Shown here one piece after another: positions 19,760 to 20,700 of a stretch of 51,533 nt of DNA. The notes under the pieces are model-generated. The model was not told where the DNA came from, ran no database searches, and saw only the letters and a program-made list of their open reading frames with translations. Position numbers and translations under genes: made by a program. Positions within the stretch are counted from its first letter, which is position 1. Every line of letters starts with the position of its first letter. The stretch lies in assembly GCA_016181305.1 (NCBI GenBank), contig JACOZN010000014.1:1-51533 (forward strand). Direction: 5' to 3'. This stretch comes from Candidatus Woesearchaeota archaeon (lineage in GTDB: Archaea; Nanobdellota; Nanobdellia; Woesearchaeales; GW2011-AR4).

Positions 19760-19803
19760 TTCAAAAGGTTTTTATAGGATTTACTAATACAAAATCCCAT
19801 TTC

Positions 19804-19923
19804 GGGCCTGTGGTCTAGCGGTTACACGCTGAATTGCTTCGCAATTCGCTGGTTTACAGCATAGCCGTAAATGACAACACCCTTACACGGTGTAGGTCAC
19901 CAGTTCGAATCTGGTCAGGCCCA
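19804..19923 (+). tRNA. tRNA-Val(UAC) with ~47-nt intron in the D loop
   Basis: Acceptor GGGCCTG (19804-19810) pairs with CAGGCCC (19916-19922), discriminator A. Anticodon arm ACACC / CTTACAC / GGTGT gives anticodon TAC (valine). The T arm ACCAG-TTCGAAT-CTGGT is perfect. The D arm is interrupted: GTCT-AGCGGTT continues after ~47 nt as ATGAC. Removing 19824-19870 (or one base over, as both junctions have A) yields a regular 73-nt tRNA. GCGG (19818-19821) pairs with CCGT (19865-19868) between 3-nt bulges TTA and AAA, a relaxed bulge-helix-bulge, and the intron holds a 7-bp hairpin. CCA is not encoded. A TATA-like element near 19771-19785 serves as promoter. Confidence 0.85.
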
Positions 19924-19932
19924 CTTGCTTAT

Positions 19933-20014
19933 GCGCGAGTGATCTAGTGGCTATGATAGGGCCTTGCCAAGGCTAGCAATGCTAAGATCGGGAGTTCGAA
20001 TCTCGGCTCGCGCA
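19933..20014 (+). tRNA. tRNA-Gly(GCC)-like, with insertion and T-stem mismatches
   Basis: Acceptor GCGCGAG pairs perfectly with CTCGCGC (20007-20013). D arm ATCT-AGTGGCTA-TGAT and anticodon loop TTGCCAA (GCC, glycine) look normal. Two faults follow. After the 3' anticodon strand there are 8-9 extra bases: with them in place the anticodon stem has only 3-4 good pairs, while removing TAGCAATG would restore GGGCC/GGCCT. And the T stem GGGAG/CTCGG has two G-G oppositions. A T-run (20019-20025) ends the transcript. It may be a functional tRNA with a tiny intron, or a decaying gene whose 3' end was overwritten. Confidence 0.55.
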
Positions 20015-20097
20015 TAGCTTTTTTTCTTTACGTTTATTAGAAAAACCAATAATGTTCTTTTTTCAACTATTGGTGGTATTTGCCATTTATAAATATC

Positions 20098-20150
20098 ACG
20101 CGAGGATGTCCAGTGGTAAGAAAACAACTATGCAAGTCCCGGCTCGCGCA
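20098..20150 (+). pseudogene. tRNA-Gly remnant lacking anticodon and T arms
   Basis: CGCGAG (20099-20104) and CTCGCG (20143-20148) would form an acceptor stem. TGTCCAGTGGTAAGA after it matches a typical archaeal tRNA-Gly D arm. About 20 unrelated bases follow directly, then CCCGGCTCGCGCA, a tRNA-Gly 3' end. Anticodon arm and T loop are gone. The 12-bp CGGCTCGCGCAT at its end is shared with the neighbouring tRNA-Gly-like gene. It abuts the 3' end of the MTHFS gene. A deletion derivative or integration scar is likely; function is doubtful. Confidence 0.55.
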
Positions 20151-20151
20151 T

Positions 20152-20700
20152 TTATTTACACTCAATAACTTTACTCTCAGTCACAATCAAGTCAACAGGA
20201 ACATCATGCTCTTCCCTTGGGACTTTGTCAACAACCTGGAAGTCAAAGCACAATCCAATCTTGACCGCTTTCGGCACTTTCTTCAGGAACTTGTCATAGT
20301 AGCCAAATCCGTAGCCAATCCTGTGCCCTTCCCTGTCAAAGGCAATGCCGGGCACCAACACTATATCAATGTTCTTGTAGGCAATCTTCATCAGCCCGAC
20401 AGGCTCAAGAATGCCGAATTTTGCAGGAGCCAGATTGTAGAAATCTATGATTACAGAAGGCTCGATTTCGCGCTGTACAACCTTCGGGACTGCAACTGTC
20501 TTGTTTTTCAGAGCATCCTTAATAATCTCATGCGTGTCAACTTCATTGTCAAAGGATACAAAGAACATGACTACCTTGGATTTTTTGTATTGCTCGAGAT
20601 TAAACAAATTTTTGCAGATTTGGGAGCTTTTTTGCAATATATCCCCTGTTGACAGGGAATTCCGCTTTTCGACGATTGATTTCTTAAGCTGGGCTTTCAT
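20152..20700 (-). CDS. 5-formyltetrahydrofolate cyclo-ligase (MTHFS)
   Basis: A 182-residue enzyme that converts 5-formyl-tetrahydrofolate to 5,10-methenyl-tetrahydrofolate with ATP. The N-terminal basic helix (KKSIVEKRNSLS) and the C-terminal substrate site DREGHRIGYGFGYYDKFL are diagnostic. VLVPGIAFD precedes it as in the family. It belongs functionally with the one-carbon and purine genes here. Same strand as purD (51-base gap containing a TATA-like element near 20727-20735). Its stop lies two bases from a tRNA-Gly remnant. Confidence 0.88.
   Translation of the reverse strand: MKAQLKKSIVEKRNSLSTGDILQKSSQICKNLFNLEQYKKSKVVMFFVSFDNEVDTHEIIKDALKNKTVAVPKVVQREIEPSVIIDFYNLAPAKFGILEPVGLMKIAYKNIDIVLVPGIAFDREGHRIGYGFGYYDKFLKKVPKAVKIGLCFDFQVVDKVPREEHDVPVDLIVTESKVIECK

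What the first reader, a model, noticed from the sequence alone, without database searches (positions are those of the whole stretch)
19804..19923. tRNA-Val(UAC) intron in the D loop
The gene folds to a perfect valine tRNA only if ~47 nt are removed from the D loop. Introns away from position 37/38 need a splicing endonuclease with broad specificity, known chiefly from Crenarchaeota and some DPANN. The exon-intron junction pairs GCGG/CCGT with 3-nt bulges on each side, a relaxed BHB.
Basis: partly seen in the sequence, partly recalled or inferred. Interest (0 to 1): 0.7.

Follow-up and report, generated by a model that had tools for sequence, protein, structure and literature searches.

The report
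Spliced D-loop intron in archaeal tRNA-Val
A valine tRNA gene of a tiny Woesearchaeota archaeon is interrupted by a 47-base intron in an unusual place, and it belongs to a genome in which nearly every tRNA gene is interrupted although the only cutting enzyme found is the kind thought able to remove just the standard introns.

Summary
Window 19804-19923 is tRNA-Val(UAC) with a 47-nt intron (19824-19870) between positions 20a and 21 of the D loop. Removing it gives a complete cloverleaf. A congener (G007) carries the same gene without intron, 72 nt, differing from the predicted product at two bases. Congeners carry 12-46 nt introns at this exact site. They share a 4-bp exon-intron helix (38 of 40 pairs; shuffles 16.7 +/- 3.0) and short unpaired junctions. 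This is an archaeal splicing-endonuclease intron at a position already known in Crenarchaeota and Nanoarchaeota.

The context is new in the papers I could search. The genome is a Woesearchaeota MAG. Of 23 tRNA genes that I could read, 21 have introns (about 28 introns, half at noncanonical sites, 11 in the D arm). What is found is one alpha-type gene per genome, with no second subunit and no CSL- or ASL-type loop. The literature holds that only (alpha-beta)2 and epsilon2 enzymes remove relaxed introns efficiently, so this lineage breaks the rule or hides a partner.

In passing, several relatives' rtcB genes (the splicing ligase) carry 12-33 nt mRNA introns whose removal restores the conserved protein. 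No RNA data exist here; splicing is inferred.

The parts
19770..19778 (+). TATA-box-like TTTTATAGG about 30 bases before the gene
   Evidence: read directly; function inferred
19804..19823 (+). exon 1 of tRNA-Val(UAC): acceptor 5' strand, D stem 5' strand, D loop to U20a
   Evidence: intronless orthologue L114
19824..19870 (+). 47-nt intron in the D loop, between positions 20a and 21
   Evidence: removal gives a full cloverleaf; absent or of other length in orthologues
19871..19923 (+). exon 2 of tRNA-Val(UAC), anticodon TAC at 19884-19886, discriminator A19923
19818..19821 (+). 5' strand GCGG of the 4-bp central helix of the splice motif (exon)
19865..19868 (+). 3' strand CCGT of the central helix (intron end)
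   Evidence: pairing kept in relatives
19822..19824 (+). 5' splice junction UU^A
   Evidence: read directly; cut position inferred from bulge geometry and the mature sequence
19869..19871 (+). 3' splice junction AA^A
   Evidence: read directly; cut position inferred
19831..19847 (+). intron hairpin GAATTGC-TTC-GCAATTC
19932..20015 (+). neighbouring tRNA-Gly(GCC), 84 nt, enlarged and with a mispaired T stem
   Evidence: comparison with L119 and L123

Best explanation
tRNA-Val(UAC) is transcribed with a 47-nt archaeal BHB-class intron in its D loop. The exon sequence GCGG (part of the mature D loop) pairs with CCGU at the intron's 3' end, so that the two junctions, UU^A and AA^A, lie unpaired next to a 4-bp helix above the D stem. 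The splicing endonuclease cuts both. The only candidate in the genome is one alpha-type EndA, which would act as a homotetramer. RtcB then joins the exons to give the D loop AGCGGUUA and the sole detected tRNA for GUA codons. Shown by sequence: the gene structure, the conserved junction motif, precise presence and absence in orthologues, and a single EndA gene without CSL or ASL. Inferred: that splicing occurs, that this EndA does it as alpha4, and that RtcB ligates.
For: Predicted mature tRNA scores 119.9 in ARAGORN and the unspliced gene is not recognised. G007 has the intronless gene; G003, G004, G011 and G016 lack the D intron but have one at 37/38; G001 (12 nt), G015 (15), G017 (22), G018 (30), G002 (41), G019 (45) and G014 (46) have D introns of different sequence at the same junction. 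The junction helix is kept in 38 of 40 pairs, including GUGG/CUGC and UCCG/CGGA variants. tRNA-Val(GAC) of the same genome has a D intron at the same site with the same junctions, and nine other tRNAs have D-arm introns; in-silico removal restored a cloverleaf in all of them, though ARAGORN's label for Gln was not parsed. Alpha-type EndA with intact triad and an RtcB gene are present. A TATA-like box precedes the gene.
Against: No RNA reads. The genome is 78% complete, so a second EndA subunit or a second tRNA-Val(UAC) could be missing. The lowest-energy fold of the whole transcript does not show the junction helix; it appears when the D arm is folded alone. The D stem below the helix has only three pairs. 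Published work says alpha4-type enzymes do not remove relaxed motifs efficiently (PMC6379350). The rtcB copy in this assembly is itself interrupted and lacks 46 nt.
Confidence: 0.88

Rival explanations
1. Broken tRNA copy: a chance insertion has disabled the gene and another tRNA-Val reads GUA codons.
For: The neighbouring tRNA-Gly(GCC) has a mispaired T stem and a decayed tRNA-Gly-like remnant lies at about 20098-20152, so decay does occur here. The assembly is 78% complete.
Against: Acceptor, anticodon and T arms are intact; no other UAC gene was found; congeners carry inserts of different length at the same junction with the junction helix kept; the insert is exactly absent in G007.
Confidence: 0.05
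2. The intron is real, but the nuclease is an (alpha-beta)2 or other broad-specificity enzyme whose second subunit is too diverged for Pfam or lies in the missing parts of the MAGs.
For: The enzymes described as efficiently cutting relaxed motifs are (alpha-beta)2 or epsilon2 (PMC6379350, PMC12397907). The closest solved relative by sequence is the N. equitans alpha subunit of an (alpha-beta)2 enzyme.
Against: One PF01974 gene in 52 of the 53 genomes with a match, including four genomes called 100% complete elsewhere in the order; PF02778 finds only the same gene above cut-off in G000; the N. equitans beta chain was detected at 6.7e-16 with this alpha as query, so an ordinary beta subunit should be seen.
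Confidence: 0.3
3. A self-splicing group I or II intron.
For: None beyond the interruption of a tRNA.
Against: 47 nt (12 nt in G001) is far too short, and the Rfam scan of the window found only the two tRNAs.
Confidence: 0.005
4. The gene is read as two pieces (permuted or trans-spliced) rather than cis-spliced.
For: Such genes exist in Nanoarchaeota and Crenarchaeota (PMC4090602).
Against: Both exons are colinear, in order, 47 nt apart, with the intron's 3' end complementary to exon 1.
Confidence: 0.01

Closest known systems
Noncanonical BHB tRNA introns at 20/21 and other sites in Thermoproteales and Nanoarchaeum (PMC4090602)
   Same: Position class 20/21, several introns per gene, similar introns in different tRNAs, relaxed motifs; comparable density (Thermoproteales 0.84 introns per tRNA gene, P. 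calidifontis 71 in 46 genes, PMC8450103; here about 28 in 23 readable genes).
   Different: Lineage is Woesearchaeota, not described for this in the papers I could search; those groups have (alpha-beta)2 enzymes, here only an alpha-type gene is found.
Alpha4 EndA of Methanocaldococcus jannaschii (1A79)
   Same: Same size, both domains, same catalytic triad, no CSL.
   Different: Alpha4 is described as limited to strict motifs; here the apparent substrates include relaxed D-loop junctions down to a 12-nt intron (G001).
Crenarchaeal (alpha-beta)2 EndA with CSL, and ARMAN-2 epsilon2 EndA with ASL (PMC12397907)
   Same: Broad set of intron positions in the host's tRNAs.
   Different: No second subunit, no three-unit fusion, and no loop insertion in any Woesearchaeota sequence aligned.
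Archaeal pre-mRNA BHB introns of cbf5 (PMC2738675)
   Same: Introns in a protein gene whose removal restores the frame, as seen in the rtcB genes of relatives.
   Different: Gene is the splicing ligase; introns are 12-33 nt at four sites in one conserved stretch.

Membership tests
Archaeal BHB-class tRNA intron (noncanonical, 20/21) | removal restores a complete tRNA | tested here: met
   ARAGORN 119.9 after removal, nothing before; orthologue L114
Archaeal BHB-class tRNA intron (noncanonical, 20/21) | 4-bp central helix between exon and intron end with unpaired 3-nt junctions | tested here: met
   GCGG/CCGU, UU^A, AA^A; 38 of 40 pairs over ten introns; seen in the D-arm fold
Archaeal BHB-class tRNA intron (noncanonical, 20/21) | strict motif with regular helices on both sides | tested here: not met
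   only three D-stem pairs below and no regular helix directly above; in the 12- and 15-nt introns the 5' site lies in a loop. Relaxed motifs are a recognised form of the family (PMC6379350), so this does not exclude membership.
Archaeal BHB-class tRNA intron (noncanonical, 20/21) | cut by EndA and exons joined in RNA | not testable with these tools
   no RNA or protein assays
Broad-specificity EndA, (alpha-beta)2 with CSL or epsilon2 with ASL | second subunit or three-unit protein | tested here: not met
   one 196-aa gene with one N and one C domain; single in nearly all relatives; MAG incompleteness is the caveat
Broad-specificity EndA, (alpha-beta)2 with CSL or epsilon2 with ASL | CSL or ASL insertion with lysine near the active site | tested here: not met
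   the CSL columns of S. tokodaii are gaps in all 30 Woesearchaeota sequences, and there is no other insertion in that stretch; no ASL sequence was aligned directly
Alpha4 EndA | single-gene protein of about 180-200 aa with both domains and Tyr/His/Lys triad | tested here: met
Alpha4 EndA | homotetramer | not testable with these tools
   oligomer not determined
Group I intron | catalytic core | tested here: not met
   47 nt; no Rfam match

The most novel reading that the evidence does not exclude
A Woesearchaeota family has an intron-saturated tRNA set, with D-loop, D-stem, anticodon-stem, anticodon-loop and T-loop introns as short as 12 nt or less, that is spliced by a single loop-less alpha-type endonuclease, breaking the rule that broad specificity needs a beta subunit or a CSL/ASL loop. 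The same splicing extends to the mRNA of its own ligase, rtcB, which would make the ligase depend on itself.
Probability: 0.5. Interest if true: 0.8.

Novelty: new variant of a known kind. Interest (0 to 1): 0.6.

Why it matters
The accepted view ties the spread of tRNA introns to the gain of special endonuclease subunits or loops. A lineage with intron density at the level of the Thermoproteales and only a plain alpha-type enzyme makes that view directly testable with one purified protein and one short RNA. Close species differ by single introns at orthologous sites, so intron gain and loss can be followed. It probably also explains why a general tRNA search reports few tRNAs in these genomes (9-16 in some genomes of 93-100% estimated completeness), which affects gene counts and completeness estimates.

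Tried and rejected
Group I intron and broken-copy readings rejected as given above. I checked whether a complete genome of the order (G044, one contig, one EndA) also has D-loop introns: the tRNAs I could read have only 37/38 introns or none, so the D-loop expansion is claimed only for the window's genus and some relatives beyond it. A ScpA tree with the Val intron states needs at least 10 changes among four states, but with weak support inside the genus, so no count of gains and losses is claimed. The exact cuts proposed for tRNA-Pro(CGG), tRNA-Leu(GAG), tRNA-Cys(GCA) and tRNA-Gln(UUG) are less certain than for Val and Ile(UAU). Paper searches for Woesearchaeota or DPANN tRNA introns found nothing on point; the library lacks most subscription papers, and Kaneta 2018 (PMC5829648) is not held.

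Full report
What is in the window. The 120 bases 19804-19923 hold tRNA-Val(UAC) with 47 extra bases in the D loop. Standard tools do not read it: default ARAGORN misses it, Rfam finds only its 3' part, and ARAGORN with introns allowed places the intron wrongly. With 19824-19870 taken out the sequence is GGGCCTGTGGTCTAGCGGTTATGACAACACCCTTACACGGTGTAGGTCACCAGTTCGAATCTGGTCAGGCCCA, which ARAGORN reads as tRNA-Val(tac), score 119.9. G18, G19 and C56 of the elbow are all kept.

The junction. Exon GCGG (19818-19821) pairs with intron CCGU (19865-19868). The bases UUA (19822-19824) and AAA (19869-19871) stay unpaired, and cutting each after its second base gives the mature D loop AGCGGUUA. Folding the D arm alone gives this helix. 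The full transcript's minimum-energy fold does not show it, although that transcript is far more stable than shuffles.

Comparison with relatives is the strongest evidence. Loci brought by the neighbouring ScpA gene are nearly all titled Candidatus Woesearchaeota. A search of 59 genomes gave orthologous tRNA-Val genes, in many cases followed by tRNA-Gly(GCC) as in the window. In the same genus, G007 has no intron (72 nt, two differences from the predicted product). G003, G004, G011 and G016 have only a 37/38 intron. G001, G002, G014 and G018 have only a D-loop intron, and G015, G017 and G019 have both. D-loop intron lengths are 12 (G001), 15, 22, 30, 41, 45 and 46 nt. Across ten Val D-loop introns the predicted junction helix forms 38 of 40 pairs, against 16.7 +/- 3.0 when intron bases are shuffled (0 of 20000), and sliding the partner mostly destroys it. 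The introns are related, so this is support for a maintained motif rather than ten independent proofs. G019 keeps the helix with a changed exon (UCCG/CGGA).

The rest of the genome. G000 is a 1.07-Mb MAG, 78% complete. A whole-genome tRNA search, a T-arm pattern search and reading of the fetched stretches gave 23 readable tRNA genes. Only Val(CAC) and Ile(GAU) have no intron. I count about 28 introns: 14 at 37/38, 11 in the D arm (Val-UAC, Val-GAC, Ile-UAU, Leu-GAG, Pro-CGG, Arg-CCU, Arg-UCU, Lys-CUU, Cys-GCA, Glu-UUC in the loop; Gln-UUG in the stem), two in the T loop (Leu-UAA, Glu-UUC) and one at 30/31 (Leu-UAG). These assignments are my reading, not a program's. In-silico removal gave a recognised cloverleaf of the expected anticodon for 12 of 13 genes tried; the thirteenth, Gln, was scored (111.9) but its label was not parsed. 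For Ile(UAU) the predicted D-loop product equals the intronless D arm of a relative in the same family (G020, L134). For comparison, Thermoproteales average 0.84 introns per tRNA gene and Pyrobaculum calidifontis has 71 in 46 genes (PMC8450103). Position 20/21 is a known noncanonical site (PMC4090602).

The enzyme. G000 has one match to the catalytic domain PF01974 and one above cut-off to the N domain PF02778, both in the same 196-aa protein at C21. In relatives one gene is found in 52 of the 53 genomes with a match; G012 has two matches, both near contig ends. The alignment of 30 Woesearchaeota sequences with M. jannaschii, S. tokodaii and N. equitans shows the Tyr/His/Lys triad (conserved in G000) and the absence of the S. 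tokodaii CSL segment in every one. Reviews state that only (alpha-beta)2 and epsilon2 enzymes efficiently remove relaxed motifs, and ascribe this to the CSL or ASL lysine (PMC6379350, PMC12397907). Either this alpha-type enzyme has gained breadth by other means, or a partner is missed. Genomes of the order called 100% complete support a single gene, but the one complete genome whose tRNAs I read (G044) showed only 37/38 introns, so no closed genome here combines D-loop introns with proof of a single EndA.

The ligase. RtcB is present. Its gene is interrupted in G000 and in several relatives. At one site, six genomes (G000, G001, G003, G010, G012, G024) carry 30-33 nt with stop codons or a frameshift; removal between two bulges of a BHB-type fold restores DGHWGYGFPIGG, the sequence of uninterrupted relatives. 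A second site, two codons upstream (G006, G011, G016), has 33 nt with an in-frame stop. A third (G001, G006) has 12 nt with a stop. A fourth (G016, G000) has 32 nt that shifts the frame in the IGFDINCG motif. These look like pre-mRNA BHB introns; the case known in the papers I found is cbf5 (PMC2738675). In G000 the gene also lacks 46 nt between the two sites, so that copy is either damaged or misassembled. G019 and G025 have a long open insertion at the same motif, probably an intein.

Conclusion. The finding is a genuine D-loop intron of a known class, in a lineage and enzyme context that are not described in the literature I could reach. Splicing, the oligomer and the specificity of the enzyme are inferred.

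Noticed in passing
L320 (G000:C1:22900-24700); L302, L303, L304, L306, L319, L321, L324, L326: rtcB, the splicing ligase gene, carries 12-33 nt BHB-like introns at four sites in its conserved catalytic stretch in several genomes of the genus and family; removal restores the conserved protein. The G000 copy also lacks 46 nt.
   Followed up: partly
L322 (G019), L323 (G025): rtcB has a long in-frame open insertion (about 1.5 kb) at the same motif, probably an intein.
   Followed up: no
L017 (G000:C5:2199-2271 and upstream, minus strand): tRNA-Lys(CUU), spliced as predicted in the D loop, would have C19 and G56 instead of the near-universal G19-C56 elbow pair: a compensatory swap.
   Followed up: partly
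L249, L250, L251; L111, L114: The sequence CAACCTTTT..GCAAAAAGCTTGRCCAAAA occurs inside introns of tRNA-Thr(CGU), tRNA-His and (reversed) tRNA-Lys of G000, its three exact matches in the genome, and in D-loop introns of tRNA-Gly in G018 and G007: possible intron transposition.
   Followed up: partly
window 19932-20015: tRNA-Gly(GCC) has about 8 extra bases after the anticodon stem and a T stem (GGGAG/CTCGG) that does not pair fully, unlike CCGAG/CTCGG in relatives: decaying or unusual.
   Followed up: partly
window 20098-20152: Remnant of another tRNA-Gly (CGCGAGGATGTCCAGTGG ... AGTCCCGGCTCGCGCA) without anticodon arm.
   Followed up: no
L021 (G000:C2:59224 region): tRNA-Ile with anticodon UAU, rare in archaea (also in N. 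equitans and Korarchaeum, PMC8450103), with D-loop and 37/38 introns, followed by tRNA-Glu(UUC) with D-loop and T-loop introns.
   Followed up: partly
L014 (G000:C21:45213), L016 (G000:C19:35292): tRNA-Gly(CCC) lacks its 3' end after the T loop, and a second tRNA-Leu(UAA) has an interrupted, mispaired 3' end: pseudogenes or split genes.
   Followed up: no
L009 (G000:C2:67004-67117): tRNA-Val(GAC) has C instead of the near-invariant U at position 33.
   Followed up: no
G009, G016, G023, G044: General tRNA search finds only 9-16 tRNAs in genomes of 93-100% estimated completeness, probably because introns hide the rest.
   Followed up: partly
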